DNA from: Psychromonas sp. MME1
Lineage (GTDB): Bacteria > Pseudomonadota > Gammaproteobacteria > Enterobacterales > Psychromonadaceae
Reading direction: 5' to 3'
Assembly (NCBI RefSeq): GCF_041080865.1
Contig: NZ_CP160906.1
Location: 2,666,001 to 2,730,000 of the forward strand
Length of the DNA stretch: 64,000 nt
In this document: positions 9,523-60,450 of the stretch, one piece after another
How the letters are laid out: the number at the start of each line of letters is the position of its first letter
Numbering within the stretch: position 1 is the stretch's first letter
The notes under the pieces: model-generated
What the model saw: the letters and a program-made list of their open reading frames with translations, nothing else
What the model was told of the DNA's origin: nothing
The model's database searches: none
Position numbers and translations under genes: made by a program

Positions 9523-9539
9523 TGGCCTGCTATATGCTT
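9523..9539 (+). promoter_or_regulatory. Predicted sigma-54 (-24/-12) promoter of PEP-CTERM gene
   Basis: The sequence TGGCCTGCTATATGCTT has the required GG (9524-9525), N10, GC (9536-9537) spacing. It lies 70 bp upstream of the PEP-CTERM start and downstream of the gene for the sigma-54 activator PrsR. The -24 box TGGCC and -12 box TGC fit the consensus. The rest of the 9291-9606 gap is AT-rich DNA in which no gene is visible. Confidence 0.65.
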
Positions 9540-9606
9540 AACTCAAATAGGCAACCACAACAATATATTCGAGTTAGCCTTTAAACCACTACATAAGGAG
9601 AATAAG

Positions 9607-10122
9607 ATGAAAAAATTTCTTTCACTATTATCTATTGCGTTAGTTCTTTTATTTACTGCGAGTAGCGCTTCAGCAATGCTTATTCAAGGTGAGATAAGTT
9701 TTACAGGTAATGCAACAACGACTGCTGCTGGAGGGGTAGTTACCTCTGTCGACTTCGGCACTTTTAATGTCGATGTAATAAAAGGCAACTTTATACCTTA
9801 CGTTAGTACAGGGGCTGTTGCAACATTCACAGACCTCGCAACTGTCGCCGCTACAAATAGCTTATGGACAGCAGGAGGCTTTACTTTCGATCTTAACAAC
9901 GTGCTTTACAACTCTGTTGACTATGGCGCAGCCGTTATTGCAGGAACAGGATTTATTTCAGGCAATGGCTATGACTCAACCGCTTTCAAATGGTTATTTA
10001 CGAGTCAAGTTGGTGAATCAAAAACTTTCTCTGCGACAGTAGTTCCTGCTCCAGCAGGTGCAGCATTACTTGGTTTAGCTATCTTGGGATTTGGTTTAAC
10101 TCGTCGCAATAAAAGAGCATAA
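9607..10122 (+). CDS. PEP-CTERM-type sorted surface protein (VPAPA variant)
   Basis: This 171-residue protein has an N-terminal signal peptide (cleavage near SASA-M), a beta-rich low-complexity body, and a C-terminal sorting signal: VVPAPAGAALLGLAILGFGL followed by TRRNKRA. That tail has the exosortase-substrate layout of a Pro-containing motif, a hydrophobic helix and a basic end. The motif is PAP rather than canonical PEP. The mature protein is probably cut by an exosortase (not in the window) and released with exopolysaccharide. AAGGAG precedes the ATG at the right distance. It follows the Prs operon behind a terminator, with its own predicted sigma-54 promoter. Confidence 0.85.
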   Translation: MKKFLSLLSIALVLLFTASSASAMLIQGEISFTGNATTTAAGGVVTSVDFGTFNVDVIKGNFIPYVSTGAVATFTDLATVAATNSLWTAGGFTFDLNNVLYNSVDYGAAVIAGTGFISGNGYDSTAFKWLFTSQVGESKTFSATVVPAPAGAALLGLAILGFGLTRRNKRA

Positions 10123-10170
10123 GGTAACAAAGAATAACAAAATAAAGCGCTACGCTGCTAAATTTTCAGA

Positions 10171-10204
10171 CCCATAAATATATTGCTTATTTATGGGTTT
10201 TTTA
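10171..10204 (+). terminator. Rho-independent terminator after PEP-CTERM gene
   Basis: The stem CCCATAAATA / TATTTATGGG with a short loop is followed by TTTTTT. It lies about 50 bp downstream of the PEP-CTERM stop codon. Confidence 0.9.
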
Positions 10205-10315
10205 TTCTACATAAAATCTACAACTCATAGATCACGCACATAAAATTAGCCTCTTACTCAGCAACATGAATTACGTTATGATGATATTGCCTCCTTCTTG
10301 AAATGGACTATATGA

Positions 10316-11347
10316 ATGGAAAATAAGAAAACGAAGTTCTTGCTCAGTTTAGATTATGAGCTTTTTTTCGGTAATAAAAGTGGTAGTGTAGAAAACTGCA
10401 TGATTAAGCCAACTGAGCAATTATTAACACTGTTGGATAACTATAACTACAAAGTAAGCCTATTTGTTGATGCGGGTTTTTTACTTAAATTGAAACAGTA
10501 TGCAACTGACTTCCCTCAGCTAGCCCTACAATATTCCTCAATAAAAAAACAGCTTCTTGCACTTTCTGCAAATGGTCACGATATACAACTTCACATTCAC
10601 CCACATTGGCAAGATAGCATCTATGATGGAACAGGATGGATTATTAATACACAACGCTATCGCTTACACGATTTTAGCCCATTAGAGGTGAATGAGATAG
10701 TACAAAACTATAAACAAGAGCTTGAATCCTGTACTGAACAAGAGATATTTGCCTTTAGAGCAGGCGGTTGGTGTTTACAGCCATTTGCACAGATTAAGCA
10801 AGCATTGCAAGCTAATCAAATTTGGCTAGATAGCACCGTTTTTAACCAAGGTCATTCCGATGATCCGACACGTTGGTTCAATTTTAAAAATGCGCCTAAA
10901 CAAGCTTACTGGCATTTCAGTGATGATCCAGTACACCCTAATAAGGATGGTTATTTTACAGAAATCCCCATTAGCGCAACGAAAACATCTCCCTTATTTT
11001 TTTGGAAGTTAGCATTACGTAAGAAATTATCTCGTGGTATTTTTGACAGCTTTGGTGATGGGCAAGCAATGATTGCCAATCGCAGTTATTATATTGAACG
11101 TTTAACTAAAACAACCTATGGGCCAGTGATGGTTGATGGTTCAAAGGCAGGGCAATTAGAGAAGGCATATCAGGACCATCTAAAATCAGCGGATCATGAC
11201 AACATTTTTAATGTCATGGGACATCCAAAAAGTTTATGCCCCTACTCGTTGGTCAAATTAAAACACTTTATAGAAAAACATCATAATGAAATGAGATCTA
11301 TTACCTATCAGGACCTTAAGCATTTAAAGCGTAATATAGTCAAATAA
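10316..11347 (+). CDS. Polysaccharide deacetylase family protein (WalW-like)
   Basis: A 343-residue predicted cytosolic protein with no signal peptide. The N-terminal LSLDYELFFG carries the catalytic/metal Asp of NodB-type deacetylases. HDIQLHIHPHW supplies metal-binding histidines, and FAFRAGGWCLQP resembles the R-x-P-loop motif. Such enzymes remove acyl groups from polysaccharide or glycan precursors. Placed after the PEP-CTERM gene, it may modify the same exopolysaccharide, though it has its own upstream region and may be independent. The substrate cannot be read from sequence. Confidence 0.72.
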   Translation: MENKKTKFLLSLDYELFFGNKSGSVENCMIKPTEQLLTLLDNYNYKVSLFVDAGFLLKLKQYATDFPQLALQYSSIKKQLLALSANGHDIQLHIHPHWQDSIYDGTGWIINTQRYRLHDFSPLEVNEIVQNYKQELESCTEQEIFAFRAGGWCLQPFAQIKQALQANQIWLDSTVFNQGHSDDPTRWFNFKNAPKQAYWHFSDDPVHPNKDGYFTEIPISATKTSPLFFWKLALRKKLSRGIFDSFGDGQAMIANRSYYIERLTKTTYGPVMVDGSKAGQLEKAYQDHLKSADHDNIFNVMGHPKSLCPYSLVKLKHFIEKHHNEMRSITYQDLKHLKRNIVK

Positions 11348-11352
11348 GACAG

Positions 11353-11385
11353 CCCCCTGAATATAGGTTTACCATGTTCAGGGGG
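11353..11385. other. GC-rich hairpin between convergent genes
   Basis: CCCCCTGAA and TTCAGGGGG form a 9-bp stem around a 15-nt loop between the deacetylase (+) and pyrE (-). There is no clear U-tract on either side, so it may be a weak bidirectional terminator or a transcript-end stabiliser. Confidence 0.45.
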
Positions 11386-11421
11386 AGAAAACACACAGTC
11401 AGCAAAGATAATTGCGTATCG

Positions 11422-12063
11422 TTAAATTCCGTATGCTAAGCGATAGGCTTTAACTGACTCAAGGTGCTCATGCATATCTGGTTGCGCTTCTAAATAGGTA
11501 ATGAGGTCTGATAACTGCACGATAGATATCACCGTTGCACCATAATCACGTTCAACTTCTTGAATAGCCGATAATTCAGCCTTACCTTTTTCTTGACGAT
11601 CCAACGCAATTAACACGCCAGCTAGCTGTGCATGGTGAGCTTGGATAATATCCATCGATTCACGAATGGCTGTGCCCGCGGTAATAACATCATCTACCAG
11701 CATGATTTTACCTTGCAACTCAGAGCCAACTAAACTCCCCCCTTCACCATGTGTTTTAGCTTCCTTACGGTTAAAACAATATGGTATATCTAAATCATAA
11801 CCATCCGCTAATGCAACTGCCGTGGTTGTTGCAATTGGAATACCTTTGTAGGCTGGCCCAAAAAGGAGGTCGTAATCAATTCCAGAATCCATTAATGCTG
11901 CCGCGTAAAATCGCCCTAAGCGGGCCAAATCTCGCCCAGTATTAAATAATCCCGCATTAAAAAAGTAGGGGCTTATACGACCAGATTTTAGGGTAAATTG
12001 ACCAAATTTAAGCACCTCTTTTTCAAGTGCAAATTCAATAAACTCTTTCTGATAATCTTTCAT
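11422..12063 (-). CDS. pyrE: Orotate phosphoribosyltransferase
   Basis: A 213-residue enzyme of de novo pyrimidine synthesis that converts orotate and PRPP to OMP. The PRPP-binding motif [13 protein letters not shown] is intact. The N-terminus ([18 protein letters not shown]) and overall length match E. coli PyrE (213 residues). It starts 4 bp after the rph stop, so rph-pyrE form an operon as in other gammaproteobacteria. The short gap leaves no room for the rph-pyrE attenuator known in E. coli. Confidence 0.97.
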
Positions 12064-12067
12064 ATTA

Positions 12068-12787
12068 CTACTCCGCGCTTAATGCTTTTTTCTGCTCGTT
12101 AATTAATTTATTAATGCCACCTTCCGCAAGGCTCAACATCGCTAATAACTCCTGATGGCTAAAGGCGCCATTTTCAGCGGTACCTTGAATCTCAATCATA
12201 CCACCGCTATCGGTCATCACGACATTCATATCTGTTTCTGCATTGGAATCTTCAGCATAATCTAAATCACAGACAGCTGTTCCTTGGTAAATACCCACTG
12301 ACACAGCTGCAATCATCTGTTTTAAAGGGCTTTTTTTCAGTTTACCCGCAGCCACCATCCAATTTAATGCATCGACCAGTGCAACACATGCCCCAGTGAT
12401 AGAAGCTGTGCGCGTGCCACCATCGGCCTGTATAACATCACAATCAACAGTGATCATGTTTTCACCCAGTGCATTTAAATCAACAGCGGCCCGTAATGAA
12501 CGAGCAATGAGGCGTTGAATTTCTAAAGTACGCCCACCTTGCTTTCCTTTTGCCGCTTCACGCATATTGCGAGTATGTGTCGCACGGGGCAGCATTGCAT
12601 ATTCGGCAGTTACCCATCCTTTACCCTTTCCCTTTAAAAATGGCGGGACAGAATCACTGACACTGGCATTACATAATACTTTTGTATTGCCAACCTCAAT
12701 TAACACTGAGCCTTCGGCATAATCGGTATAATTACGGGTAATTTTAATATCACGGTTTTGCTCTGGAGTTCGGTTGCTAGGACGCAT
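12068..12787 (-). CDS. rph: Ribonuclease PH
   Basis: A 239-residue phosphorolytic 3'-5' exoribonuclease that trims tRNA 3' ends. RNase PH signatures are present: [10 protein letters not shown] at the N-terminus, [19 protein letters not shown], and the phosphate/active-site segment [18 protein letters not shown]. The length equals the family norm, with no sign of the C-terminal frameshift known in E. coli K-12. It is the first gene of the rph-pyrE operon. Confidence 0.97.
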
Positions 12788-12871
12788 AAATCAATCAGCC
12801 TTATTAAAAAAAGAAGGCGCATTATATACCGATTCGCCTTCAAGATGCGAATTCAGTGAAATGCGCCAACT

Positions 12872-12884
12872 TATACCAATCGGA
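12872..12884. repeat. Solo copy of a dispersed TATACCAATCGGA repeat end
   Basis: TATACCAATCGGA matches the terminal repeats of the MITE-like element at 17304-17465. Only one end is visible in this 146-bp gap between rph and the protease gene, so it may be a decayed copy. Confidence 0.5.
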
Positions 12885-12933
12885 ATAAAGAGTGCCGATA
12901 TGCGAGGCATTGATTACAGTAACAACTTGCTCT

Positions 12934-15840
12934 TTATTTATCTCGATTAGCTACCCGCTTTGGTAAATTATCGACATCTGTAATTTTCACTTCATTAGGC
13001 AACGACAAGAATGGAAGCTCTTTATATTTCGTTCCCTGTACTTGTACGATAATTTGCTGACTGTTCTTACCCTGCAAAAATACTTTTTGATAAAATTCCT
13101 GCACGGCTTGCAAAGAGATACTCTGCAGAGTTTTAATATAAAGTGGTTTATGATTAACATCCGCTTTGATACTCAACCATTCATTCATTAAATAATCAAA
13201 CTCTGCGGCAATATTATTCGGTTTTGCTAAATAATTAGCGACATGAGCTTGCTTAATTGTATTAAATTTTTCTGTACTTATTTCATTTAATTGCTGAGAA
13301 AATTTATTTAAAAAGGCATCAAAACGGTCATAGAGCTGCGCATTACTTAGCACCGGCGTTTGTGTGAATAAGCCGAAGGCAACGCTATCATTAACCGGAA
13401 AAGAAGCACTAAAGGGTGAATAGGTTAACTGTTCTTGAGTGCGAATTTGGTCATAAAATGCAGGACGCAATAATTGGTTTAATAACTCTGCGGTTGCTAA
13501 GGATGCATCGTCCTGGAAATCGGTGAGATAAATAGAAGCAAGCGCATCATCTTCCATGGGCGAAGTAAGCGTATAATTTAAGGGGCCTTGCACAAGATTC
13601 GCCTGTAAACGGTCAATCACATAGAATGGTACAGATTGAATCTTGACCAGTTGCTCTATGTCATGGAATAACGCAAGTACTTGCTTACTACTCAGGTTCC
13701 CTAACGCAAGTAAGCGCACGCTTGAAGTGCTAAATAATTGCTTAATGAAGAGCGACATATCATCCACAGTTATCACTGCTAGTGCATTTTTTAATGTTTC
13801 ATCGGACCATGTCGGTTGACGTACAACATCACGAAATCCTGCCATCGCCAAATCCATTGCTTTAGATTTACTCTTATTATTAAGTCGGCGCTCCATCTCT
13901 TGTTTCGCCTGAGTAAGTGATTGCTCACTAAACTCTGACTTTTTAATCTCTTGCAAGACAGTTAATAGCAACTTATCCTGCTTATCACTATAACCACTGG
14001 TATTGATGACCATTCCATTACTATTATTAATAGAAAAATTTAAGCCAGCTTCCTGTGTAATAAAGTTCAATTCCGCAAAATTTTTATTCAATAAATTAAG
14101 TAGTAAGCTCATCATCACACGATTATTTGCGCTTTGATCGGCAATATCATTATTAAGCTGCAACTTTAAAATAGCTTTAGGCTCATCCAAATACTGACTT
14201 TGCTGATACCACAACGAAGCGCCGGGTTTATTAATCAACTGCTGTGCAACCTCAGTCTGCTCATTATTAACAAGTGATAAATTTTCAGGTAACCACAAGT
14301 TACTACTTGGTAATTTTAAATGAATATTTTTTGCATCCGCTAGCCAAGCTTGTTGAGTTTCAACCGATACCTGTTGCAGTGCATATTTTCCTTGATAATG
14401 AGGGATTTGAAGCTCCCCTTTTACACTCGGGCTTACTTCAAAAATGCGGCTATTCTGTGGGGTCAAATAGGTTAATAGTTGGGTAATAAATTCACTATTA
14501 AAGGCATCAAGTCGATAGGGGAAGAACAAAATATCTTTATATGGGTAAATCTGCATGTTCGCCGATAACGCCATGACATAATCAAAGCCTGAGTATTTAT
14601 TTAAAAATTGAAAACGTGTACTTAAACTTTGCTGCTGTTGTTCATACTGTAAGCTATTTATCCCCTTATTTTTAATCAGGTCAATAAATGCAAATAATGT
14701 CGCCATGATTTTATCTTGCTGCTCAACACCTTTACCGGTGAGTTTAAACTGCATACTCAGTTGTGAGTATTGCTCACTATATGTACTATAGAATCCCGAC
14801 ATCACCGACTCAACTAAAGCCTGCTTTTGCAAGGTATCTGACAACCCTCCTTGATGGTCAGAGCCTAACAAACGACTAATATACCCACCCGGTTGATACA
14901 TATATTCATCTTTGACGCTCGGTAATAAAAAATTCACCTGCAGCATTTTAATATCGGCAGTGGGCTTCATAGAAACTTTAATCGCCAACTGCTCCTTTGT
15001 TAACAAAGGGGTCGCAATAACAGGTTTGCTAACCTTTTTGTTAGGTATTTGCGTCAAATATAAACTGGCAACCTGCTCCAACTGTTTTATCGTCCTGGGG
15101 CCAGTGATAGCAACCTTCATTAAATTAGCGGAATAGTAACGGTTAAAAAAACGGACCAATTCATCCTGTAATTTACTATTGGATTTGTCCACTAACGTGG
15201 TTAAATCGCCCGTGCTAAAACGTGCCATTGGATGGTCAGGATTAAGTGTAAAACGCTGCAAAGCATAAAGCTTACGCATATCATTATCAAAATAGGTTTT
15301 GTGCTCTGCATTCACGGTATGGCGTTCTTTATCGGCATATTTCTCATCGAGTAAAGGCGCTCTCATCACATCGCCTAATCTATCAAGCGCCTCACCTAAA
15401 TAGTCATCATTCACTTCAAAGCCATATACCGTGCTATCTTGTGACGTATAAGCATTCGTATAACCACCGTGCTGATTCATAAATTCGCTATATTCATTAA
15501 TCGTAGGGTAACGTTCTGAGCCAAGGAATAGCATATGCTCTAAATAATGCGCTAAACCTAACTGCAATTCTGGATTATGCATACTACCAACGGGCACAGA
15601 TAAAGAAGCGGAGCTGTTCTCTAAATCAGGATCAGAAACGAGCAAAACCTCAAGGTCATTGCTTAAACGAATGACTTTATATTCACGCGTATCATTGGGG
15701 CTTTTTATAATATGGTTATCTAACGGGGTAAATGAAGGCATCGCTAACTCAGTGTTTGGGGTGGCATTTGCCAATGGGATAAATGAAACAAGGCACAGCA
15801 AAGAGGCTGTGAGCAGATATATCGAGCTAATACGCGGCAT
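12934..15840 (-). CDS. ptrA: Pitrilysin-type M16 zinc metalloprotease, periplasmic
   Basis: About 968 residues from the preferred ATG at 15840, giving a signal peptide that ends near ANA-TPN. An upstream in-frame extension to 15918 lacks a sensible signal and is rejected. The inverted zinc motif HxxEH is intact (HYLEH at about 98-102, in GLAHYLEHMLFLGS), with the distal glutamate in the VNAEHKTY region. Length and domain order (active M16 domain, then inactive halves) match protease III of E. coli (962 residues), which degrades periplasmic peptides. It is followed by neither recB nor recD, unlike E. coli, so the symbol reflects homology only. Confidence 0.85.
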   Translation of the reverse strand: MPRISSIYLLTASLLCLVSFIPLANATPNTELAMPSFTPLDNHIIKSPNDTREYKVIRLSNDLEVLLVSDPDLENSSASLSVPVGSMHNPELQLGLAHYLEHMLFLGSERYPTINEYSEFMNQHGGYTNAYTSQDSTVYGFEVNDDYLGEALDRLGDVMRAPLLDEKYADKERHTVNAEHKTYFDNDMRKLYALQRFTLNPDHPMARFSTGDLTTLVDKSNSKLQDELVRFFNRYYSANLMKVAITGPRTIKQLEQVASLYLTQIPNKKVSKPVIATPLLTKEQLAIKVSMKPTADIKMLQVNFLLPSVKDEYMYQPGGYISRLLGSDHQGGLSDTLQKQALVESVMSGFYSTYSEQYSQLSMQFKLTGKGVEQQDKIMATLFAFIDLIKNKGINSLQYEQQQQSLSTRFQFLNKYSGFDYVMALSANMQIYPYKDILFFPYRLDAFNSEFITQLLTYLTPQNSRIFEVSPSVKGELQIPHYQGKYALQQVSVETQQAWLADAKNIHLKLPSSNLWLPENLSLVNNEQTEVAQQLINKPGASLWYQQSQYLDEPKAILKLQLNNDIADQSANNRVMMSLLLNLLNKNFAELNFITQEAGLNFSINNSNGMVINTSGYSDKQDKLLLTVLQEIKKSEFSEQSLTQAKQEMERRLNNKSKSKAMDLAMAGFRDVVRQPTWSDETLKNALAVITVDDMSLFIKQLFSTSSVRLLALGNLSSKQVLALFHDIEQLVKIQSVPFYVIDRLQANLVQGPLNYTLTSPMEDDALASIYLTDFQDDASLATAELLNQLLRPAFYDQIRTQEQLTYSPFSASFPVNDSVAFGLFTQTPVLSNAQLYDRFDAFLNKFSQQLNEISTEKFNTIKQAHVANYLAKPNNIAAEFDYLMNEWLSIKADVNHKPLYIKTLQSISLQAVQEFYQKVFLQGKNSQQIIVQVQGTKYKELPFLSLPNEVKITDVDNLPKRVANRDK

Positions 15841-19623: not shown

Positions 19624-19661
19624 AGCACCAAAATGATCCACAAAAGCACCTTGTTGGTGCA
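19624..19661 (+). promoter_or_regulatory. Predicted NtrC (GlnG) binding sites upstream of glnA
   Basis: AGCACCTTGTTGGTGCA at 19645-19661 matches the NtrC palindrome TGCACCA-N3-TGGTGCA in 15 of the 17 positions when N counts as a match. A weaker copy begins AGCACCA at 19624, giving centre spacing of 21 bp, two helical turns. They lie about 90-130 bp upstream of the predicted start point, the distance expected for an enhancer. Confidence 0.75.
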
Positions 19662-19808: not shown

Positions 19809-21225
19809 ATGTCTGTAAAAACTGTGCAAGATGTTCTTAATTTAATCGAAGAGCAAGAAGTAAAATTCGTTGATTTACGTTTTACCGATACACGAGGTAA
19901 AGAGCAACACGTTTCGATTCCACATCACCAAGTTGACGAGGACTTTTTCGAAGATGGAAAAATGTTCGATGGCTCTTCAATTGCAGGTTGGAAAGGCATT
20001 CAAAATTCTGACATGGTATTAATGCCAGCGCCAGAAACAGCCGTACTTGACCCCTTTACAGATGATGTAACACTTAATATTCGTTGTGATGTATTAGAGC
20101 CTAAAACCATGCTCGGTTACGACCGTGATCCACGCTCTGTGGCAAAACGTGCAGAAGCTTACATGCGTTCAACGGGTATTGCTGATACGGTTTTATTTGG
20201 TCCTGAGCCTGAATTTTTTCTATTTGATGACGTTAAATACGGTAACTCTATGCAAGGCGCATTCTTCTCTATTGATGCAAAAGAAGCTGCATGGAATTCA
20301 GGAATCCTACGATGAAGGCAACACGGGTCACCGCCCTGGTGTTAAAGGAGGTTACTTCCCGGTCGCACCTGTCGATTCAGCGCAAAATATTCGTAGTGCA
20401 ATGTGCTTAATCATGGAAGAAATGGGGCTAGTTGTTGAGGCTCATCACCATGAAGTAGCAACGGCAGGCCAAAATGAAATTGCCTGTCGCTTTAATACAA
20501 TGGTTGAAAAAGCCGACGAAATTCAAATTTATAAATATGTTGTGCATAACGTCGCTCATGCATACGGTCAAACCGCAACATTCATGCCTAAACCGATTAT
20601 TGGCGATAACGGCTCAGGCTGCCACTGTCACCAATCTTTAGGTAAAGACGGTGTTAACTTATTCTCGGGTGACCAATACGCAGGCCTATCGGAATTAGCA
20701 CTTTACTATATTGGCGGTATTATCAAGCACGCTAAAGCCCTTAATGCATTTACCAATGCATCAACTAATTCTTACAAACGTTTAGTGCCACATTTTGAAG
20801 CCCCTGTCATGCTCGCATATTCTGCAGGTAATCGCAGTGCATCAATTCGTATTCCAATTGTACCTAGCGCTCGTGCTGCACGTGTTGAAGTGCGCTTTCC
20901 AGATCCAACAATGAATCCATACCTTGGTTTTGCTGCAATGTTAATGGCGGGTCTTGATGGCATTAAAAACAAAATCCACCCAGGAGAATCATTAGATAAA
21001 GATCTCTATGATCTTCCTAAAGAAGAGGCTGATGCGATTCCACAAGTAGCTGTTTCTTTTGAAGAAGCACTTGCAGCTTTGGATGCGGATCGCGAGTTCT
21101 TAACCGCTGGCGGCGTGTTCTCAGATGAGGCTATTGATGCTTACATCGCACTTAAAACAGCAGAGTGTGAGTCTGTTTCTCGTGCCACACACCCGAAAGA
21201 ATTTGAACTATACTACAGCGTATAA
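19809..21225 (+). pseudogene. glnA: Type I glutamine synthetase, interrupted by a frameshift
   Basis: The first frame (19809-20315) encodes residues through AAWNSG and then runs into a stop. The rest continues in another frame from about 20305 ([16 protein letters not shown]) to 21225, ending FELYYSV exactly like other GlnA proteins. Together they give a full-length enzyme of about 469 residues, including the adenylylation tyrosine in DLYDLPK. Alignment to remembered E. coli and Vibrio GlnA fits a 2-bp loss near 20304, or a 1-bp gain with one residue missing. Regulatory sequences upstream are intact, so this could be a recent mutation or a sequence error. If real, ammonia assimilation would depend on the type III enzyme next door. 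Confidence 0.88.
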
Positions 21226-21508: not shown

Positions 21509-23683
21509 ATGAGTGGAAACCAAGTCCGCCTACAAGCAATTGAACAAATTACTAATCGTGCACCAAAAGAGGTCGCTCAGCCTCAAGCATTAAACAAAAT
21601 TTGGGCTGAAGATGTATTCAACTTCCAAAAAATGGAACAAGCACTTTCTAAAAATGCGTTTAAAGCCATTAAAAAAACAGCACAAACAGGTGCAGTATTA
21701 GACTCAGCAACGGCTGATGTTGTTGCAGCAGCTATGAAAGAGTGGGCTCTGAGCAAAGGCGTTAAATTCTTTTCTCATATTTTCTACCCAATGACGAACA
21801 TCACAGCTGAAAAACATGATGGCTTTATTGTTACAAATTCCGATGGCGGCGCTATCTCTGAATTTACAGGTAGCTTATTGATTAAGGGCGAACCTGACGG
21901 CTCTTCTTTCCCGAACGGAAGCTTACGTATGACTAACGCTGCGCGTGGTTATACGGCATGGGATCCAACAAGCCCTGCATACATTATGCATACTGCTAAT
22001 GGTTCTACATTAATGATCCCAAGTGTATTTATGTCTTGGACAGGCGAAGCATTGGATAAAAAAATCCCACTTCTACGCTCTATCTCTGCAGTAAATAAAG
22101 CAGGACAAAAAGTACTGACGTTAATGGGTGAAAAAGATATCGCACCTTTAAACTCAAGCTGTGGAGCAGAACAAGAGTACTTCTTAGTTGATGAAAACTT
22201 TGCAAATGCTCGCCCTGACCTATTATTAGCTGGCCGTACACTATTTGGTGCGCCACCTGCAAAAGGTCAAGAATTTGATGATCACTACTTTGGTGCAATC
22301 CCAGAGCGTGTACAAGTCTTCATGCAAGACTTCGAAGACACTCTTTATAAATTAGGTATTCCAGCTAAAACTCACCATAACGAAGTTGCACCTGGTCAAT
22401 TTGAAATTGCACCTTATTATGAAGCGGCTAACGTTGCAGCTGATCATCAACAATTAATGATGACAGTGATGAAAAGCACGGCTAAAAAACATGGTTTCCT
22501 ATGCTTATTGCATGAAAAACCATTCGCAGGTGTTAATGGCTCTGGTAAACATGTTAACTGGTCTATCGGTAACGCAACACAAGGTAACCTACTAGATCCA
22601 GGCAGTACTCCACATAGTAACCTTAACTTCTTACTATTCTGTGGTGCTGTTATTCGTGGTGTACACAAATATGGTCCATTATTACGTGCAGTAATCGCAT
22701 CAGCTTCAAACGATCACCGTTTAGGTGCAAACGAAGCGCCACCAGCAATCATGTCTGTTTATTTAGGCGACCAATTGGAAAATGTCTTTAAAGACATTAA
22801 AGAAGGTAAACTATCTTCTTCAAGCACGGGTGGTTTAATGGATCTTGGTTTATCACAAATCCTACAATTCCAACGTGATCCAGGTGACCGTAACCGTACT
22901 TCACCATTTGCATTTACAGGTAACCGCTTTGAATTCCGTGCTGTGGGTTCATCACAATCTGTATCGGGTCCATTAGTTGCAATGAATACAATGCTTGCTG
23001 ATTCATTAAACTGGATAGCGGAAAAATTAGAAGCAACACTAGCAACTTCTGCTGATCAAACAACTGCGGTTATCTCTGTATTAAAAGAGTTGATGGAACT
23101 TCACGGCAATGTTGTCTTTGGCGGTGACGGATATTCAGCAGAGTGGCATGAAATGGCAGTTTCTGAGCGTGGTTTGAAAAATCTACGTAACTCAGCAGAT
23201 GCTTTACCTGAATTTAAAGCTGACTACATTGTTGAACTATTCAAGAGAACAGGCGTATTGTCTGAAATTGAATTAGCAAGCCGTTTTGAAGTTTATGCGG
23301 AACAATACGTACAATCAATTGCTGTTGAAGCGAATTTGGTTGTTGATATTGCAACAACCAAGATTTACCCAGCAGCTGTTAACTACTTATCTGAACTTGC
23401 TCTAACATCTTCTTCAATGCAAGATTTAGGGATTGAATTAGATACGTCATTAGCAGCAAGTATTGCTACAGAAGCAAATGCGATGATGTCAGCGGTTGCT
23501 AAATTAAAAGCAGCTAAGGCAACTCATGATTTTGCTTCAACAGAGGAACATTTACGTTTCTGTGCTGATGATATTCGTGACTTAATGAATACTGTTCGTG
23601 CACATGCAGATACGCTAGAAACCTTAGTGGCTGATGAATTATGGCCTCTACCTAAGTATGCTGAAATGTTATTTATTAAATAA
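21509..23683 (+). CDS. glnN: Type III glutamine synthetase (GlnN)
   Basis: The 724-residue protein is much longer than GlnA and matches the GSIII family: an N-terminal extension, then the catalytic segments SSCGAEQEYFLVD, KTHHNEVAPGQFEIAP, GVNGSGKHVNWSIG and RTSPFAFTGNRFEFRAVGSSQS (abridged: SPFAFTGNRFEFRAVG). It synthesises glutamine from glutamate, ammonia and ATP. GSIII enzymes are hexamer stacks not known to be adenylylated. It lies directly after the frameshifted glnA with its own predicted sigma-54 promoter, so it is probably induced under nitrogen limitation and could replace GlnA. AAGGAG precedes the ATG. Confidence 0.93.
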   Translation: MSGNQVRLQAIEQITNRAPKEVAQPQALNKIWAEDVFNFQKMEQALSKNAFKAIKKTAQTGAVLDSATADVVAAAMKEWALSKGVKFFSHIFYPMTNITAEKHDGFIVTNSDGGAISEFTGSLLIKGEPDGSSFPNGSLRMTNAARGYTAWDPTSPAYIMHTANGSTLMIPSVFMSWTGEALDKKIPLLRSISAVNKAGQKVLTLMGEKDIAPLNSSCGAEQEYFLVDENFANARPDLLLAGRTLFGAPPAKGQEFDDHYFGAIPERVQVFMQDFEDTLYKLGIPAKTHHNEVAPGQFEIAPYYEAANVAADHQQLMMTVMKSTAKKHGFLCLLHEKPFAGVNGSGKHVNWSIGNATQGNLLDPGSTPHSNLNFLLFCGAVIRGVHKYGPLLRAVIASASNDHRLGANEAPPAIMSVYLGDQLENVFKDIKEGKLSSSSTGGLMDLGLSQILQFQRDPGDRNRTSPFAFTGNRFEFRAVGSSQSVSGPLVAMNTMLADSLNWIAEKLEATLATSADQTTAVISVLKELMELHGNVVFGGDGYSAEWHEMAVSERGLKNLRNSADALPEFKADYIVELFKRTGVLSEIELASRFEVYAEQYVQSIAVEANLVVDIATTKIYPAAVNYLSELALTSSSMQDLGIELDTSLAASIATEANAMMSAVAKLKAAKATHDFASTEEHLRFCADDIRDLMNTVRAHADTLETLVADELWPLPKYAEMLFIK

Positions 23684-54235: not shown

Positions 54236-54244
54236 ATAATAAAC

Positions 54245-54266: not shown

Positions 54267-54292
54267 CTCTTTACCACTTAACGACTATTGCA

Positions 54293-55072
54293 TTAGAAAT
54301 GTAACTGTAAACCTGCGTAGGCACCTTTAAACTCAGCATCTGCATAGATGCCACTAAGATCTTCAATATCAAATTTAATATCGCGGTAGCCAAATTGCAC
54401 CGTCGCATCTATCGCAAGTGTTTCAATCATATTCCAGAAAATACCACCTTGAATATCATGCACATGATGATCATCGTAGCCAATCCAGTTTACTTCACCA
54501 TAAACGCCTAATCCAGTAAAGGGTAAGCCAATTTCAGCTGCCACATAACCTAACGGAATAACCCCATTGTAGGACTCTTCTGCGCTCTGTGACAGGCTAT
54601 TGCCCTGATTATCTTCTACTGTACCATCAAGTTTTACCTTAAAATCACCATATTTAGCATTAAGCCCCAGATCAAGGGAGACAATATCGTTATCTAAGAT
54701 TTCGTAATAGAGAATAAAATCGAAATGATCCAATTTTGCATCCACAGAGGCATGTCCGGTGAAGGTATAATCACCAAATTCCAAATTGTTAACATCACTA
54801 TACCCCTTTACATCGAGTTGGTTATAGCGAATTTTAATATTAGGTATTACTGGAATAGGATGCTCTAAAGCGACCCAGAAACTCCCTTTGGTCTTATCAT
54901 CCAGATTAAACGATTGCATTGTGCCATCTTCACCAAATGAACCTGAAGATTCCATATTCCAAATCTGCGCACCGGCATAAAGGCCTGCTATGGTGTCAGC
55001 TTGTACGGCTAATGGGGTGAATAATAGTGGAGAAGAGAGCGCTAAAACGCTAAAGCGAAATGTATTATTCAT
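54293..55072 (-). CDS. Outer-membrane beta-barrel protein (TIGR04219-type)
   Basis: A 259-residue protein with a signal peptide (cleavage after VQA-D) and alternating beta strands ending in the C-terminal strand EFKGAYAGLQLHF, the terminal aromatic typical of outer-membrane barrels. Layout (GLYAGAQIWNMESSG at the start) matches small barrels of the TIGR04219 type. Function unknown. It is divergent from the c-di-GMP-controlled lipoprotein, with a 513-bp spacer. Confidence 0.72.
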   Translation of the reverse strand: MNNTFRFSVLALSSPLLFTPLAVQADTIAGLYAGAQIWNMESSGSFGEDGTMQSFNLDDKTKGSFWVALEHPIPVIPNIKIRYNQLDVKGYSDVNNLEFGDYTFTGHASVDAKLDHFDFILYYEILDNDIVSLDLGLNAKYGDFKVKLDGTVEDNQGNSLSQSAEESYNGVIPLGYVAAEIGLPFTGLGVYGEVNWIGYDDHHVHDIQGGIFWNMIETLAIDATVQFGYRDIKFDIEDLSGIYADAEFKGAYAGLQLHF

Positions 55073-55423
55073 AAATTTATCCTTAAAAGTAGTTAATCCA
55101 TTTAAACAGTGATTATTGTCACCTGATAATGAAATTCGCGCAACTACATTACCATTCTATTACCCTCTAGCTAATAATTAACCCAACGCGTCACTCATTT
55201 CATTTTCGAGTGACCATTAAAATATAATTTATACAGTACATATTTAAACTAAAAAACAACACGTTATATTTAAAAAAAATCAATGTGAACAGAAAACATC
55301 ATGAAACAATCAAAAGCGAACTTGTATTGTACAAAAAAACGACATAAAATCATCGCGTAAATAGAAATTAAAACAAATTCACAAATTTCAACTCAGTTTT
55401 CACTAATATTGTTCGCTAGAAAA

Positions 55424-55500
55424 TAGCAAATTGAGGGAAACCTTAAGACGCAAAACCACCGGCCTGTAGAGTAAGCTCCATGGCAGCGGGGTTACCGAGG
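55424..55500 (+). ncRNA. c-di-GMP-I (GEMM) riboswitch
   Basis: GCAAA, then a hairpin TTGAGG-GAAA-CCTTAA with GNRA tetraloop, then GACGCAAAACCACCGGCC, a second hairpin, and AGCGGGGTTACCG. Order and key bases match the class I c-di-GMP aptamer, including the tetraloop/receptor pair and the conserved GCGGGGTTACC arm. It lies 86 bp upstream of an FN3 lipoprotein gene. The preceding 55073-55423 is AT-rich, with a -10-like TAATAT at 55404 but no clear -35. Confidence 0.88.
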
Positions 55501-55532
55501 CAATGATAGACCCATCATACCTCTACTTTTTT
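55497..55532 (+). terminator. Riboswitch expression-platform terminator
   Basis: GAGG-CA-ATGAT pairs with ATCAT-A-CCTC around loop AGACCC, followed by TACTTTTTT. Its 5' arm overlaps the last bases of the aptamer, so folding of the two could be coupled. Direction of control (on or off with c-di-GMP) cannot be read from sequence alone. Confidence 0.8.
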
Positions 55533-55585
55533 ATACTTAACAATGTTATAGGATGACTGAATTATCATTTTTTGTAGGAGACAAA

Positions 55586-55939
55586 ATGCATAATTCACCC
55601 CTATCATGTAAGCACTTATTATTAATGATCTTATCTTTACTGCTCTTTTCCTGTGTATCATCCGAATCGGACTCCAGTGATCAAATAATTGACCAACCGC
55701 TTGGTGAAAAACTTCAACTTGTTATCTCGTGGTATGATAATTCAGATAATGAATCAGGCTATATCGTCGAACGCCGCCTAGCAGGAGAAGATGCCTATGA
55801 CCAAGCAATCTTCCTTCCTCAAGATAGCGACCGCTATGACGACAAAACGGCGTTCACTGGGCAGACATATTGCTATCAAGTTAGTGCATATAACCAAGCG
55901 GGTAAGTCCGCATCTGATGAAGTTTGCATTGCAATTTAA
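55586..55939 (+). CDS. Small lipoprotein with one fibronectin type III domain
   Basis: A 117-residue lipoprotein from the ATG at 55586, which has GGAG 5 nt upstream; the ATG at 55553 has no spaced ribosome site and is rejected. Lipobox is LFSC (about residue 18), then an FN3 fold (LVISWYDNSDNESGYIVERR, then TYCYQVSAYNQAGKSASDE). Probably anchored on the outer membrane and involved in adhesion or matrix contact. The upstream riboswitch puts it under c-di-GMP control. Confidence 0.82.
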   Translation: MHNSPLSCKHLLLMILSLLLFSCVSSESDSSDQIIDQPLGEKLQLVISWYDNSDNESGYIVERRLAGEDAYDQAIFLPQDSDRYDDKTAFTGQTYCYQVSAYNQAGKSASDEVCIAI

Positions 55940-56015
55940 TCGCTATTAAAAAGTGAAAAGCCGCAGGTAATATTGACTTATTATCATGCGACTTGATTTA
56001 ACTGATGCAGATAGG

Positions 56016-57434
56016 TTAATAGTTGTAACGGATCATCGCGCGGAAATCTTGTGCCGTATCAGCCACCATTCCTCCCATTCCCATCATATTCGCCTCTTGC
56101 ATCGTCATTGGAGCACCACTGTTACCAAAGAATCCATTACTACCGGAGTACTTATAATCAATATAGGTATAACGGAATTGTAAATAGAGCGTTTCACCAA
56201 TAATAGGCAAATTATAATAAGCTTCATAGGCATCACCGCGTGCTGCTATTTTAGAGCCAATTAACGTATCTTCGCCATAGGTAAATGAACGCCAATATTT
56301 AGAGCCGTGATTGAATTCAAAACCGAATCTATCATCAGCTAAAAAACCAGGTATTGTTGCACCAAGCCAATAGGAATAGCCTTTTTCATCCTCCTGTGAC
56401 CCTAACATTCCGTAGTTCCCACCTGCGGATGTACCACCATCGGGTAATGTCTGAGAGGCTGATACCGATGCAAATAAAACCGTATCATCCAAAAAGTCAT
56501 TAATAAATTCACCGACACCATTCACTTGCACAGATAAAGTGAAATTTTGCAGATCACCTAATTGCTCAAAGCCTGTTGGTTGAGGCGCCATAGGATTAGA
56601 ATAATCGTAGCCCATATCAAGCATATTGGTGGCGTAATAGTATTGCGCTTTAATATCATATTGACCATCATTATAGGGAGTAATAATAAAGCCAATCATG
56701 TCTATATTATCCGTCGCTCCCGTATCAGTATAATCATGTCCAGAGACAGAAAATCGTGGCGTACTCGTCGCACTCAAGCCTCGACCAGCACAGATTTTAG
56801 CATCCATACCAGCAACACCCGTTATTTTCTCAAGTTTTGCACTTAAACTTAGGCCATCAAATTCGACATTAATAGAATGTCCAAGTGGCGATTTTGCACT
56901 GTCATAACCTTCTCGAATGTTAGCAAGAAAGCCGTTCGTGGATGGGCGACGACCAATACTCGCCGTCCAAGGTATTTGATCATTACCTAAAAATGAATCA
57001 CCGAGATATAACATATATACCTCCTTCACCTTAAGGCTATTATCATCTAAGTTTTCGTTAGTAACCCAATCAAAATCGCCCATTCCCGGATCGTAGGGGT
57101 CACTATTAAGCCCTGTTTGCCCAAATGCTTTGTTATATGAGAGTAACCCTTTAAAAACAAGGTTATCAAAGGGCTGATACCCCATACCAATCTCTAAGCG
57201 ATTAGCTAAAAGGTCATGATTATGTAGTTTAGAGCCATCGGCCATCTTATAATCAATACTGTCCATCGTAACGCGATAATCAGCACTTAGCTTAAGGTTA
57301 TTTCCACCTACTTTTTTTTGTAATTCACGCACTTGTTCTTTTAAGTCTGCAATATCCTGCGCCTGATCAGCCTGAACTGTTGTTGAAAAGGCAATGAATA
57401 AGGAGGCGGCGATTAGCGATAATTTTTTATTCAT
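56016..57434 (-). CDS. DUF3373 family outer-membrane barrel
   Basis: A 472-residue protein with a signal peptide (VQA-D), a short coiled coil (IADLKEQVRELQKKV, about 28-42) and a beta-rich barrel. Similar to the DUF3373 porin-like proteins that accompany multiheme cytochromes in Shewanella-type bacteria. Possible role: outer-membrane passage for substrates of the octaheme enzyme. It is 86 bp after the small periplasmic protein gene. Confidence 0.72.
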   Translation of the reverse strand: MNKKLSLIAASLFIAFSTTVQADQAQDIADLKEQVRELQKKVGGNNLKLSADYRVTMDSIDYKMADGSKLHNHDLLANRLEIGMGYQPFDNLVFKGLLSYNKAFGQTGLNSDPYDPGMGDFDWVTNENLDDNSLKVKEVYMLYLGDSFLGNDQIPWTASIGRRPSTNGFLANIREGYDSAKSPLGHSINVEFDGLSLSAKLEKITGVAGMDAKICAGRGLSATSTPRFSVSGHDYTDTGATDNIDMIGFIITPYNDGQYDIKAQYYYATNMLDMGYDYSNPMAPQPTGFEQLGDLQNFTLSVQVNGVGEFINDFLDDTVLFASVSASQTLPDGGTSAGGNYGMLGSQEDEKGYSYWLGATIPGFLADDRFGFEFNHGSKYWRSFTYGEDTLIGSKIAARGDAYEAYYNLPIIGETLYLQFRYTYIDYKYSGSNGFFGNSGAPMTMQEANMMGMGGMVADTAQDFRAMIRYNY

Positions 57435-57520
57435 AATGTGTCATCCCTGTCTTATTAAAAATAGAAGGAAACTACCTATTAGTTTTCCATCATGCATTTG
57501 TAGAACTAACTAATTCCGTT

Positions 57521-57847
57521 TTAGTTACAACTAGCAAGCTCCCCACTGTCTGCGGCATACTTCTCGGCAAAATCAGCTAAATCTGGCGCTATTTTCTGAA
57601 ATGTATCACCATTTAAAAACTCGGCAGAATCAGGGAATTTCTTTGTATATTCCTTAATAAAACGTTTGGCATCATTCTTAAACAATCGTTTCCACTCAAC
57701 CTTTAAGTGCTGACTAGCAAACTCCTGCCCATTGATAGCAAAATGGGGACGCAAGTACTTCAAGTAATATTTTTGCCCCTTCGCTGCATCTGCAAACACA
57801 TTAAAAGTTAACATTAGCCCAAGTGTTAACATTATTAATTTCTTCAT
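57521..57847 (-). CDS. Small periplasmic cytochrome-like protein lacking a heme motif
   Basis: A 108-residue exported protein (signal peptide to about FA-DA). The segment GQKYYLKYLRPHFAINGQEFA aligns in character with small class I c-type cytochromes (GxxLYxxxCxxCHxxxG), but the CXXCH motif is absent and only YLRPH remains at that place. It lies between the cytochrome b gene and the barrel gene. Either a family without heme or a degenerate cytochrome. Confidence 0.55.
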   Translation of the reverse strand: MKKLIMLTLGLMLTFNVFADAAKGQKYYLKYLRPHFAINGQEFASQHLKVEWKRLFKNDAKRFIKEYTKKFPDSAEFLNGDTFQKIAPDLADFAEKYAADSGELASCN

Positions 57848-57876
57848 ATCTATCTCCTCAGCTTAATTAAAAATGA

Positions 57877-58488
57877 TTATTCTTCGATTTTTTCTTTACC
57901 GGTGATCATGGCCTTAATATGCGTTGATAACTTCTCTCCAAAGGTGATCATATAAAGATGAATGACTACAAAACTAAGCAAGGCATAGGCATTAAAGGTG
58001 TGTAAAATAGCAATTAAATCGACATGTTCTATGACGCCTGCCGCCCGTAAATCGGGAAAAAAGTAGAAAGCAAAGCCACTAATAACCTGTAACGGCAGCA
58101 GAGCGAATAAAATCGCAATGTAACCTAGACGCTGTAACGGATTAAATTTATCTTCTGGCGTTATATGATGCGGATGTTTTTCTCCCTTAAACACACCATA
58201 TAGATAAAAACGCAATGTCCCTTCCACCCCTTTTAAGGTGGGAAAATATTGCTGCCACTCACCCGTGGTCAAAATCCAGGTGTAGATCAAGACAACGAGC
58301 CCCGTCCAGACAAAACCAATGAGGTTATGTGTCTCAACCGCCGTTCCAAAACCAAATAAAACAAACAATCCATGCATTTCCAATCCTGAGAGCAATAACA
58401 ACACAATCATCAATGCTTGCGCCCAGTGCCAAAATCGCTCAAAACGCTTAAAAAGCACCACAATTTTACTGCCAGACAGATTACTCAT
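57877..58488 (-). CDS. Cytochrome b561/b-type membrane subunit
   Basis: A 203-residue protein with four transmembrane segments and histidines placed for b-heme (FERFWHWAQ near residue 15, ETHNLIGFVW near 54, and HTFNAYALLSFVVIHLYMI near 165-183). Matches the Ni-hydrogenase/formate-dehydrogenase-type cytochrome b family. It probably passes electrons between quinol and the octaheme protein. Start overlaps the octaheme stop by 8 bp. Confidence 0.82.
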   Translation of the reverse strand: MSNLSGSKIVVLFKRFERFWHWAQALMIVLLLLSGLEMHGLFVLFGFGTAVETHNLIGFVWTGLVVLIYTWILTTGEWQQYFPTLKGVEGTLRFYLYGVFKGEKHPHHITPEDKFNPLQRLGYIAILFALLPLQVISGFAFYFFPDLRAAGVIEHVDLIAILHTFNAYALLSFVVIHLYMITFGEKLSTHIKAMITGKEKIEE

Positions 58489-60130
58489 AACCTTCTCCTT
58501 GCTCTTGCTTCACTGACATTTTTTTTCTTCTAATAGCCGCTAGATAACGTAAAGCGCCATGTCCAATTACCCCCAGTAGGCCGCCAATAACAGCGAACAA
58601 AGCAAATAACTCCACCCAGAAATTACTATCTCGACCAATTAAGTAAAAATCATTTAATCCCGCTAAACGACTATCACGAGAATGACAGGAATGGCAATCA
58701 ACCGCCTCTTCTGCAGGTGCAACCATATGTTTAATAGGCCAGAATCCATTGGTTTCAATAAAATCAAAGTGCCCACTAAATTCAACTTCGTTTAATTGAG
58801 CACCTGCGGTTAATGCTTTCTCCCAGTCATACTCAGTCCATAGTGCCCCAGTGCCCTTCTTACCATATAATTTGATCGGCAAAATGCGATTAAACTCGGT
58901 GTCATAGGGTTGCTTACCACGGTGTACTTTAAAGGGCCAAATACGTGCATCGGGATCGTTGTAATTCCCCGTCGGTGGATTAATATCAATTGGTGCACTG
59001 CTAGGATCAATCACCGTTTGTAGGGTTTTCTGGATTAATTCACCTTTATACCAACGGTATTCAGGCGTCACATTACGTCCCCAAGTGAATGTACCCTTTT
59101 TACTCATATAACTATGTGCTTCCACCCCATCAAATACCTTCTCTTCCGTATAGGGTTTACCATCTTTCATCTTCGTTGCCGTAGACCAATCCCAACTCAA
59201 CTTAGTGAGATAAGGACCGCGCGCCATTTCAGGGATATGACAAGAGGTACAAGCAACCTTAGCGGTATGATTATCAATCTCACGGACTTCATGTGGTTTT
59301 TCACCATGGCAGGATTCACAGGCGACATTTTTGCCGTCACGTTCGATACGCCCCATATCTTTTTTATGGTCGATAAAAGCTTTTTTACCGTTATAACGCC
59401 CCGCAATTTCATGGCCACTGGTTTTATGGCAAGTTTGACAACTGAAATTTAGCTTATCAGGGCTCATGTGCACATCAAGGGAGTGGACAGGATCAACTAA
59501 TGACATGTCGGTGTCGCCGTGTTTTACACCATTACCGCCACCACCATTAGCATGACATGCAAGGCAGTTTTCCCGTTTAGGTGCTCCGACACTTTTTGCT
59601 ACGGCTTTAAGGTCGACCGCGGGTTGAAGAAATTCACCGAGCTGCGTCGCTTCATAGTAAGGATGTCCCGACATCGCCGCCGATTTTTTATATGTTCCTG
59701 TACCATCATGACAAACTAGGCAATCAACATTCTCTTCCGCTTCCTGATCAAAATCATCATTACGCCAACCATAGCCCGTATGACATTGTGTACAACTCTC
59801 ATTACCACGTGCAGAAACACAATAGTTATTAAAACCATTTTTGCCCTTACCAACCATTTGCTCATCGACTTTAGCAGCCCATTTCCAATGGAAGGTTTTA
59901 TGCACCTGCTTGGCAGCCTCGGTGTGGCATTCCAAACAAGCTTCAGTAACATCAGGCGCATAATCAAAATCCTGATCAAGGGATTCAAATTTACTGTGGT
60001 CTGCGGTCATCCTTGTGCGATTTAGATCTACCGCAGAAGCATCAGAATCCGTGGCCAACACCGTATTAATCCAACCTAATAGCAATAGTGCGATTATTGC
60101 TGTTGCTTTTCCTTGCATCATAACGCTCAT
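58481..60130 (-). CDS. Octaheme c-type cytochrome, tetrathionate reductase family
   Basis: About 549 residues from the ATG at 60130, with a signal peptide, eight CXXCH motifs (CLECH, CTQCH, CLVCH, CLACH, CQTCH, CESCH, CTSCH, CHSCH) from about residue 65 to 483, and a C-terminal membrane anchor (about 505-530). This fits octaheme tetrathionate reductase of Shewanella type, which reduces tetrathionate and can also reduce nitrite and hydroxylamine in vitro. Together with the downstream cytochrome b and barrel it forms a respiratory operon. Upstream 60131-60435 shows no clear regulator site. Confidence 0.87.
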   Translation of the reverse strand: MSVMMQGKATAIIALLLLGWINTVLATDSDASAVDLNRTRMTADHSKFESLDQDFDYAPDVTEACLECHTEAAKQVHKTFHWKWAAKVDEQMVGKGKNGFNNYCVSARGNESCTQCHTGYGWRNDDFDQEAEENVDCLVCHDGTGTYKKSAAMSGHPYYEATQLGEFLQPAVDLKAVAKSVGAPKRENCLACHANGGGGNGVKHGDTDMSLVDPVHSLDVHMSPDKLNFSCQTCHKTSGHEIAGRYNGKKAFIDHKKDMGRIERDGKNVACESCHGEKPHEVREIDNHTAKVACTSCHIPEMARGPYLTKLSWDWSTATKMKDGKPYTEEKVFDGVEAHSYMSKKGTFTWGRNVTPEYRWYKGELIQKTLQTVIDPSSAPIDINPPTGNYNDPDARIWPFKVHRGKQPYDTEFNRILPIKLYGKKGTGALWTEYDWEKALTAGAQLNEVEFSGHFDFIETNGFWPIKHMVAPAEEAVDCHSCHSRDSRLAGLNDFYLIGRDSNFWVELFALFAVIGGLLGVIGHGALRYLAAIRRKKMSVKQEQGEGYE

Positions 60131-60434
60131 GCTCCTAGCTTCCTGTAGTAACAAAAATACCCCCAATAGGGTATACAGCCATATTGAGTTAATTATGGCA
60201 AAACAACATGAGATAAAACTGTATTAGATCAACCTTTAGTTAATAAAGCTACATTAGATAAAACTAATTCAGAAAATGGTAATTAAGTCACACTAATGAA
60301 GCATAAATTACATTAAGGGCAGGCAGCTAAGAGGTGTCAGCTTTTTTTACAAAAAAAATAAGTTAGGTTGAAAAAAGAGAGTATAGGAAAACAAAATATA
60401 TATAACCATATGAAATTACATACCTATTAATAAC

Positions 60435-60450
60435 TGGCAAGAAAAATGCA
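60435..60450 (+). promoter_or_regulatory. Predicted sigma-54 promoter of second PEP-CTERM gene
   Basis: TGGCAAGAAAAATGCA has GG (60436-60437), N10, GC (60448-60449) and a strong TGGCA -24 box. It lies 61 bp before the ATG, nearly the same distance as for the first PEP-CTERM gene. Confidence 0.72.

What the first reader, a model, noticed from the sequence alone, without database searches (positions are those of the whole stretch)
9524..60449. Two distant PEP-CTERM genes share sigma-54 promoter elements, suggesting a PrsK-PrsR regulon
Both sorted-protein genes have a GG-N10-GC element 60-70 bp before the start (9524-9537 and 60436-60449). The window also encodes PrsR with an intact GAFTGA loop. 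The nearest other sigma-54 activator, NtrC, has no obvious site at either. This links genes 50 kb apart into one surface-protein regulon and predicts that further PEP-CTERM genes elsewhere have the same element.
Basis: partly seen in the sequence, partly recalled or inferred. Interest (0 to 1): 0.72.

Follow-up and report, generated by a model that had tools for sequence, protein, structure and literature searches.

The report
PrsR-RpoN control of exosortase-sorted surface proteins
Nearly all genes found here for one class of sorted surface proteins carry the same regulator-plus-sigma-54 switch, which was already described in 2006, and its parts turn out to be spaced in whole turns of the DNA helix with what looks like a DNA-bending site (IHF) between them.

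Summary
In detail: GG-N10-GC elements lie at 9524-9537 and 60436-60449. Alone they are weak (316 loose matches in the window), but each is half of a two-box promoter with a 17-bp box upstream (9442-9458; 60335-60351). Matrices trained only on other genomes rank these two places first and second in the window. prsR, prsK, a prsT-like gene, rpoN and one exosortase are present, and boxes follow PrsR across 369 genomes. The regulon itself is known (Haft 2006; later genetics and DNA-binding work).

Two features I did not find in the papers searched: the box-to-promoter distance comes in about 11-bp steps (42, 53, 64, 75, about 84), and an IHF-like site sits at a fixed place before the GG, in either orientation (two mismatches or fewer: 12 of 13 promoters here, 74 of 100 elsewhere). 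Likely mechanism: phosphorylated PrsR binds the box, IHF bends the DNA, and PrsR activates RpoN polymerase from one face of the helix. Binding and expression were not tested.

The parts
1..886 (+). 3' part of prsK (sensor kinase); the gene starts before the window
   Evidence: TIGR02916 491.8 bits over the 300 cut-off, open frame of 737 aa without stops, match G000:C1:2664841-2666838; C-terminal part within the window
5196..6551 (+). prsR, response regulator and sigma-54 activator with receiver, AAA+ (GAFTGA) and Fis-type HTH
   Evidence: TIGR02915 657.5 bits, cut-off 502.6; Pfam Response_reg, Sigma54_activat, HTH_8; GAFTGA read
6593..9232 (+). prsT-like TPR gene
   Evidence: TIGR02917 281.4 bits, below its cut-off of 312.2
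9442..9458 (+). PrsR box (Haft motif 1) of gene 1: TGTCGAAAAAATATACA; a partial second copy follows at 9459-9477
9491..9503 (+). IHF-like site TAAGCAACTGATA, 33 bp before the GG, 1 mismatch to YAANNNNTTGATW
9523..9539 (+). sigma-54 -24/-12 element TGGCCTGCTATATGCTT (GG 9524-9525, GC 9536-9537)
9607..10122 (+). PEP-CTERM-like gene 1 (signal-peptide-like N-terminus; C-terminus VPAPAGAALLGLAILGFGLTRRNKRA)
   Evidence: PF07589 13.8 bits, below cut-off; NF038125 and NF033554 weak tail matches; sequence
60335..60351 (+). PrsR box of gene 2: TGTCAGCTTTTTTTACA
60403..60415 (+). IHF-like site TAACCATATGAAA, 33 bp before the GG, 2 mismatches
60435..60451 (+). sigma-54 element TGGCAAGAAAAATGCAA (GG 60436-60437, GC 60448-60449)
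60511..61101 (+). PEP-CTERM gene 2 (signal-peptide-like N-terminus; C-terminus VPEPVTIALLGMGLFGLGMTRRRKSSTK)
   Evidence: PF07589 27 bits and 23 bits, cut-off 20.7; TIGR02595 over cut-off

Best explanation
The two genes belong to the PrsK-PrsR-RpoN regulon of PEP-CTERM surface proteins. PrsK senses an unknown signal and phosphorylates PrsR. PrsR binds TGTCRN7TTACA about 100 bp upstream of the start point. IHF binds a site centred about 20 bp before the -24 GG and bends the DNA. PrsR's GAFTGA loops then contact sigma-54 polymerase at -24/-12 and open it. The box must lie on one face of the helix, so its distance changes mostly in whole turns. Shown by sequence: boxes, elements, spacing rule, IHF-like sites, genes, and co-occurrence with PrsR. 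Inferred: binding, phosphorylation, IHF action and transcription.
For: Out-of-sample matrices rank the two promoters first and second in the window. 13 of 14 PEP-CTERM-like genes have the two-part promoter. Genome-wide patterns: 8 of 8 hits before PEP-CTERM genes with 0 controls, and 8 of 8 with 2 controls when relaxed. prsR, prsK, one exosortase, one rpoN, ihfA and ihfB are present. PrsR-positive genomes hold 337 of 435 boxes. Spacing period about 11 bp: n*R^2 66.5 against a null maximum of 11.4. IHF-like site at the shared place with <=1 mismatch: own genome 8 of 13 (shuffled mean 0.21), other genomes 49 of 100 (1.24), against 6 of 1238 sigma-54-like matches without a box. Literature: PMC1569441 (prediction), PMC9850573 (RpoN1-dependent pepA, mapped start), PMC9012009 passages citing Gao 2018 (PrsK/PrsR/RpoN control in Zoogloea), PMC3333781 (DVUA0057, the regulator predicted for PEP-CTERM genes, enriched the five predicted targets in vitro).
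Against: No experiment in this organism. One PEP-CTERM gene (L006) lacks the promoter. The gene-2 IHF-like site has two mismatches, and L010 has none at the usual place. Two of 13 own gaps (50 and 72) are somewhat off register. Ten of 106 PrsR-positive genomes had no box by the pattern used, and five PrsR-negative genomes had three or more (G126, G197 and G346 are 98-99% complete). In Desulfovibrio two other regulators share a few targets with DVUA0057, and its binding motif was not validated there. In Geobacter ihf mutants a PEP-motif gene (GSU1943) went up, not down (PMC7962754); whether it has a PrsR promoter was not checked. PMC9850573 reports that plasmid prsK or prsK-prsR did not restore floc formation to a prsK mutant.
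Confidence: 0.9

Rival explanations
1. The regulon is real but the element between box and promoter is not IHF: it is a site of another protein or an intrinsically bent, A/T-rich stretch that serves the same loop.
For: Only the one-sided consensus was matched; no binding data. 26 of 100 sites lack a <=2-mismatch match at the shared place. A Geobacter PEP-motif gene rose in ihf mutants.
Against: De novo search without position information returned TAA-N3-ATTGWWW, close to the reversed IHF consensus. Both orientations are enriched, and the first base of the consensus falls at -21 or -20 from the GG in either. It also appears in GC-rich spacers, 5 of 14 at <=1 mismatch against 1 of 958 controls. 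ihfA and ihfB are present.
Confidence: 0.2
2. Another of the sigma-54 activators of this genome, such as NtrC, drives the two genes.
For: Five strong activators exist among nine PF00158 matches, and NtrC is the other one encoded in the window.
Against: The best NtrC-like sites at the two genes have 4-5 mismatches, against 1 upstream of glnA. Box numbers follow PrsR across genomes. Sites of the other three activators were not examined.
Confidence: 0.04
3. Chance: GG-N10-GC is common and two hits mean nothing.
For: 316 loose matches in the window.
Against: The two-box score and the genome-wide pattern hits.
Confidence: 0.01

Closest known systems
PEP-CTERM regulatory system PrsK/PrsR/PrsT with motif 1 + motif 2 (Haft et al. 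2006, PMC1569441; section 7 and passages read)
   Same: 17-nt upstream motif ending TTTACA, sigma-54 motif 2, spacer mean 62.8, prsK and prsR close together, a prsT-like gene, EPS genes next door, several PEP-CTERM targets spread over the genome
   Different: Section 7 gives the spacer only as mean 62.8, SD 10.6 and range 32-92, with no helical register; 'IHF', 'integration host' and 'bend' do not occur in the text. Gene 1 here has a VPAPA tail.
RpoN1-dependent pepA of Aquincola tertiaricarbonis (PMC9850573; abstract, section 7 and passages read)
   Same: -24/-12 promoter before a PEP-CTERM gene, with a predicted enhancer upstream
   Different: Start site mapped and rpoN1 dependence shown there; nothing was measured here
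IHF-assisted sigma-54 promoters, e.g. orp2 of Desulfovibrio vulgaris (PMC3897727; passages read)
   Same: IHF-like site between activator site and -24/-12; orp2 has activator site at -88, IHF site at -43 and sigma-54 element at -11
   Different: Different activator and targets; IHF binding proven there, only predicted here

Membership tests
PrsK/PrsR PEP-CTERM regulon (Haft 2006) | sigma-54 -24/-12 motif upstream of PEP-CTERM genes | tested here: met
   13 of 14 genes
PrsK/PrsR PEP-CTERM regulon (Haft 2006) | 17-nt motif 1 ending in TTTACA at a spacing of 32-92 | tested here: met
   13 of 14 genes by pattern or matrix, gaps to GG 50-84; the ending varies, e.g. TATACA at gene 1
PrsK/PrsR PEP-CTERM regulon (Haft 2006) | PrsR and PrsK above family cut-off | tested here: met
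   657.5 over 502.6; 491.8 over 300
PrsK/PrsR PEP-CTERM regulon (Haft 2006) | PrsT | tested here: inconclusive
   281.4 bits, below the 312.2 cut-off, but next to prsR
PrsK/PrsR PEP-CTERM regulon (Haft 2006) | exosortase in the genome | tested here: met
   one EpsH-family match, G000:C1:2657282-2658019
PrsK/PrsR PEP-CTERM regulon (Haft 2006) | both target genes are PEP-CTERM | tested here: inconclusive
   gene 2 over cut-off; gene 1 (VPAPA tail) below cut-off
PrsK/PrsR PEP-CTERM regulon (Haft 2006) | transcription depends on RpoN and PrsR | not testable with these tools
   needs mutants
IHF-assisted sigma-54 promoter | IHF consensus between activator site and promoter | tested here: met
   12 of 13 own promoters at <=2 mismatches, shuffled mean 1.66; 8 of 13 at <=1, shuffled mean 0.21
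IHF-assisted sigma-54 promoter | IHF subunits encoded | tested here: met
   ihfA and ihfB over cut-off
IHF-assisted sigma-54 promoter | IHF binds and is needed | not testable with these tools
   needs gel shift and ihf mutant

The most novel reading that the evidence does not exclude
PEP-CTERM promoters in this bacterial class follow a three-part, helically indexed grammar. The sigma-54 element is fixed, an IHF site is locked about 33 bp before its GG (or 20 bp in the opposite orientation, with the same centre), and the PrsR box stands almost only at whole-turn distances (42, 53, 64, 75, about 84). IHF would then be a required second input to the PEP-CTERM regulon, and the rule would allow new regulon members to be found by spacing.
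Probability: 0.75. Interest if true: 0.5.

Novelty: new member of a known kind. Interest (0 to 1): 0.38.

Why it matters
It confirms in another genome a 20-year-old prediction for how bacteria switch on exosortase-sorted surface proteins. It adds a checkable promoter rule (helical register plus IHF) that may explain the wide spacer range reported in 2006, and it gives concrete bases to mutate.

Tried and rejected
GG-N10-GC alone as evidence: too common. NtrC as activator: no good site at either gene. Extra, non-PEP-CTERM targets in the own genome: none among the hits of the two whole-genome patterns or the own-genome rows; the matrices were not run over the whole genome, so weaker sites elsewhere are not excluded, and three of the 13 promoters (L005, L012, L013) are themselves found only by matrix. 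PEP-CTERM genes were sought with PF07589 alone; other tail variants may exist. A first genome pattern had a wrong gap length (N12 instead of N10) and its nine hits were set aside, three of which overlap true sites. A first script stopped with an error because minus-strand loci are not flipped. Direct alignment of the two window promoters is uninformative.

Limits of the counts. One search counts 435 matches in 164 of 369 genomes (sum) but lists only 150 rows; 121 of those end in TTACA and were kept, together with all 71 rows. One site is in both lists, leaving 191 sites from 79 genomes. The 100 sites fetched were chosen by me from these rows, leaving out rows that looked like chance hits or lay near contig ends; they are not a random sample. 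54 of 100 had a PEP-like C-terminus by a simple rule that misses genes running past the fetched stretch and can pass a wrong frame, so this is not an estimate of regulon purity. The in-phase windows (155 of 191, centres 42, 53, 64, 75, 85, 86 +-2) were set after seeing the peaks; the smoothed-null test does not use them. The one-site-per-genome null used the first listed site of each genome. The PrsR/box table was typed by hand. One near-identical spacer was dropped for (99 of 100 used). The most A/T-rich control class is small (n=23).
Full report
What was claimed and what is there. Both GG-N10-GC elements are present at the stated coordinates. Alone they are poor evidence: the loose pattern occurs 128 times on the + strand and 188 on the - strand of the window, and 11.8% of sampled 75-bp stretches contain one. 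What makes them meaningful is a second element upstream: TGTCGAAAAAATATACA at 9442-9458 and TGTCAGCTTTTTTTACA at 60335-60351.

Out-of-sample test. I built weight matrices for the box and the sigma-54 element from 100 sites of other genomes only. Scanned on both strands of the window (gaps 35-99), the two best places are the two PEP-CTERM genes (35.0 at 60335/60436 and 30.4 at 9442/9524); the third best is 14.3, and five base-shuffled windows peaked at 14.1-19.8.

The own genome (3.59 Mb, one contig) has 14 PF07589 matches, 13 over the cut-off; the fourteenth is window gene 1 at 13.8 bits. Of the 14, 13 have GG-N10-GC upstream. 12 of 14 score 25.8 or more at their own two-box site. A thirteenth (L001) has an exact pattern match, since its row shows its neighbour's site. 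One (L006) has neither. A whole-genome pattern search (box, gap 52-82, element) returned 8 places, all before PEP-CTERM genes, against 0 for the reversed pattern. A relaxed pattern returned 8 places, again all before PEP-CTERM genes, against 2 controls. The 7 own-genome rows (gap 60-90), which include window gene 2, are also all before PEP-CTERM genes. Ten of the 13 promoters are covered by these patterns; the other three are seen by matrix at the gene only, and the matrices were not run over the whole genome.

The machinery. prsR (5196-6551) is over its NCBIfam cut-off and has receiver, AAA+ and Fis-type HTH domains and a GAFTGA loop. prsK has an unbroken frame and crosses the left edge of the window. 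The gene after prsR is prsT-like but below cut-off. EPS export, chain-length and tyrosine-kinase genes of the XrtA type stand between prsK and prsR; the kinase match is below its family cut-off. The genome has one exosortase match, one rpoN match, five strong sigma-54 activators among nine PF00158 matches, and both IHF subunits among four HU/IHF-family genes.

Link to PrsR. In 369 genomes drawn from the class, 106 have PrsR over cut-off. Of these, 96 have at least one box-plus-element (pattern) and 60 have three or more, against 68 and 5 of the 263 without. Ten PrsR genomes had none by this pattern, and five genomes without PrsR had three or more, three of which (G126, G197, G346) are 98-99% complete. 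NtrC is not supported: the best NtrC-like sites at the two genes have 4 and 5 mismatches, while a 1-mismatch site lies before glnA at 19645 (the consensus is recalled).

Spacing rule. Over 191 distinct sites from 79 genomes, the distance from box end to GG piles up at 42, 53, 64 and 75, with a small group at 82-85, and is sparse at 58-61 (5 sites), 67-73 (4) and 79-81 (0) (histogram). Rayleigh power at 11.0 bp is 66.5; in 5000 draws at each of four smoothing widths the null never exceeded 11.4. With one site per genome (n=79) the median is 14.7 (range 8.3-19.9), against a 99.9% null value of 5.6. Own-genome gaps are 53, 64, 63, 64, 53, 64, 84, 53, 72, 65, 63, 50 and 65; two of 13 (72 and 50) are slightly out of register.

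IHF-like element. A motif search without position information in the 100 spacers returned TAA-N3-ATTGWWW, close to the reversed IHF consensus. YAANNNNTTGATW with at most one mismatch occurs in 47 of 99 spacers (shuffled 8.4, SD 2.7); 35 of the 47 matches counted over 100 spacers have their 5' end 31-34 bp before the GG, and 14 of 28 matches in the opposite orientation lie at 20-21 bp. In both orientations the first base of the consensus falls at about -21 or -20 from the GG, that is, the same bend centre; that this base lies near the centre of the IHF bend is recalled. The element keeps its distance to the GG while its commonest distance to the box shifts 20, 31, 42 with the spacer class. At this shared place, own-genome promoters have 8 of 13 with at most one mismatch (shuffled mean 0.21) and 12 of 13 with at most two (1.66); the 100 other-genome sites have 49 (1.24) and 74 (9.56). 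As a further control, 1238 sigma-54-like matches without a box gave 6 (0.5%) at one mismatch or fewer. In the most A/T-rich class (GC below 0.3) it was 2 of 23, against 26 of 46 among box sites. Window gene 1 has one mismatch and gene 2 two, both exactly 33 bp before the GG.

What is known. Haft et al. 2006 (PMC1569441; section 7 read whole, other passages) described motif 1, motif 2 and PrsK/PrsR/PrsT, with the motifs upstream of 99 of 167 proteobacterial PEP-CTERM genes and spacer 62.8 +- 10.6. The text contains no 'IHF', 'integration host' or 'bend'; 'helical' occurs once, in a reference title. Xia et al. 2023 (PMC9850573; abstract, section 7 and passages) mapped an RpoN1-dependent start before pepA. 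Passages of PMC9012009 cite Gao 2018 for PrsK-PrsR-RpoN control in Zoogloea; I did not read Gao 2018. [quoted passage not shown] In the held open-licence library, PEP-CTERM with IHF gave 0 papers. With 'integration host factor' there were 3, of which I looked into one (PMC10599522, passages): there the phrase is only in a reference title; the other two were seen as listings only. The search exosortase + enhancer led to PMC7962754, where the PEP-motif gene GSU1943 rose in ihf mutants (section 22). This counts against a simple activator role, at least in Geobacter. Papers outside this library were not searched.

Verdict. Observation confirmed and interpretation supported, but the regulon is a known kind. 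The possible additions are the helical register and the IHF-like element. Both are statistical results on sequence and need the bench tests listed.

Noticed in passing
window 19809-20315 and 20125-21225 (+): glnA lies in two overlapping frames: positions 3-162 of the family profile in one ORF and 161-469 in the next. Either a frameshift or a sequence error; a second, divergent glutamine-synthetase-like gene follows at 21509-23683.
   Followed up: partly
window 61217-62563 (-): CotH-like gene (PF08757) next to PEP-CTERM gene 2. By eye its C-terminus looks like a GlyGly-CTERM tail (SSGGSSSVMIVVLLYLLLLTRRRMAH), hinting at a second sorting system; NCBIfam gave no match at E 0.01. An ORF at 62512-63018 overlaps it in another frame.
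   Followed up: partly
L005 (G000:C1:612097-615165), about 954-1581 of the locus: This PEP-CTERM gene has its signal peptide and its C-terminus in different reading frames, yet keeps a PrsR box and sigma-54 element in register (gap 53).
   Followed up: partly
L006 (G000:C1:3568108-3571173): The only one of 14 PEP-CTERM-like genes without box or sigma-54 element; its tail is VSEPA.
   Followed up: no
   Followed up: no
window 58481-60139 (-): Multihaem cytochrome (PF11783) divergent from PEP-CTERM gene 2.
   Followed up: no
window 9459-9477: A second, imperfect box-like stretch directly after the gene 1 box (TGTCGCAATGTGTTCAACA); Haft 2006 notes that motif 1 is sometimes repeated.
   Followed up: no
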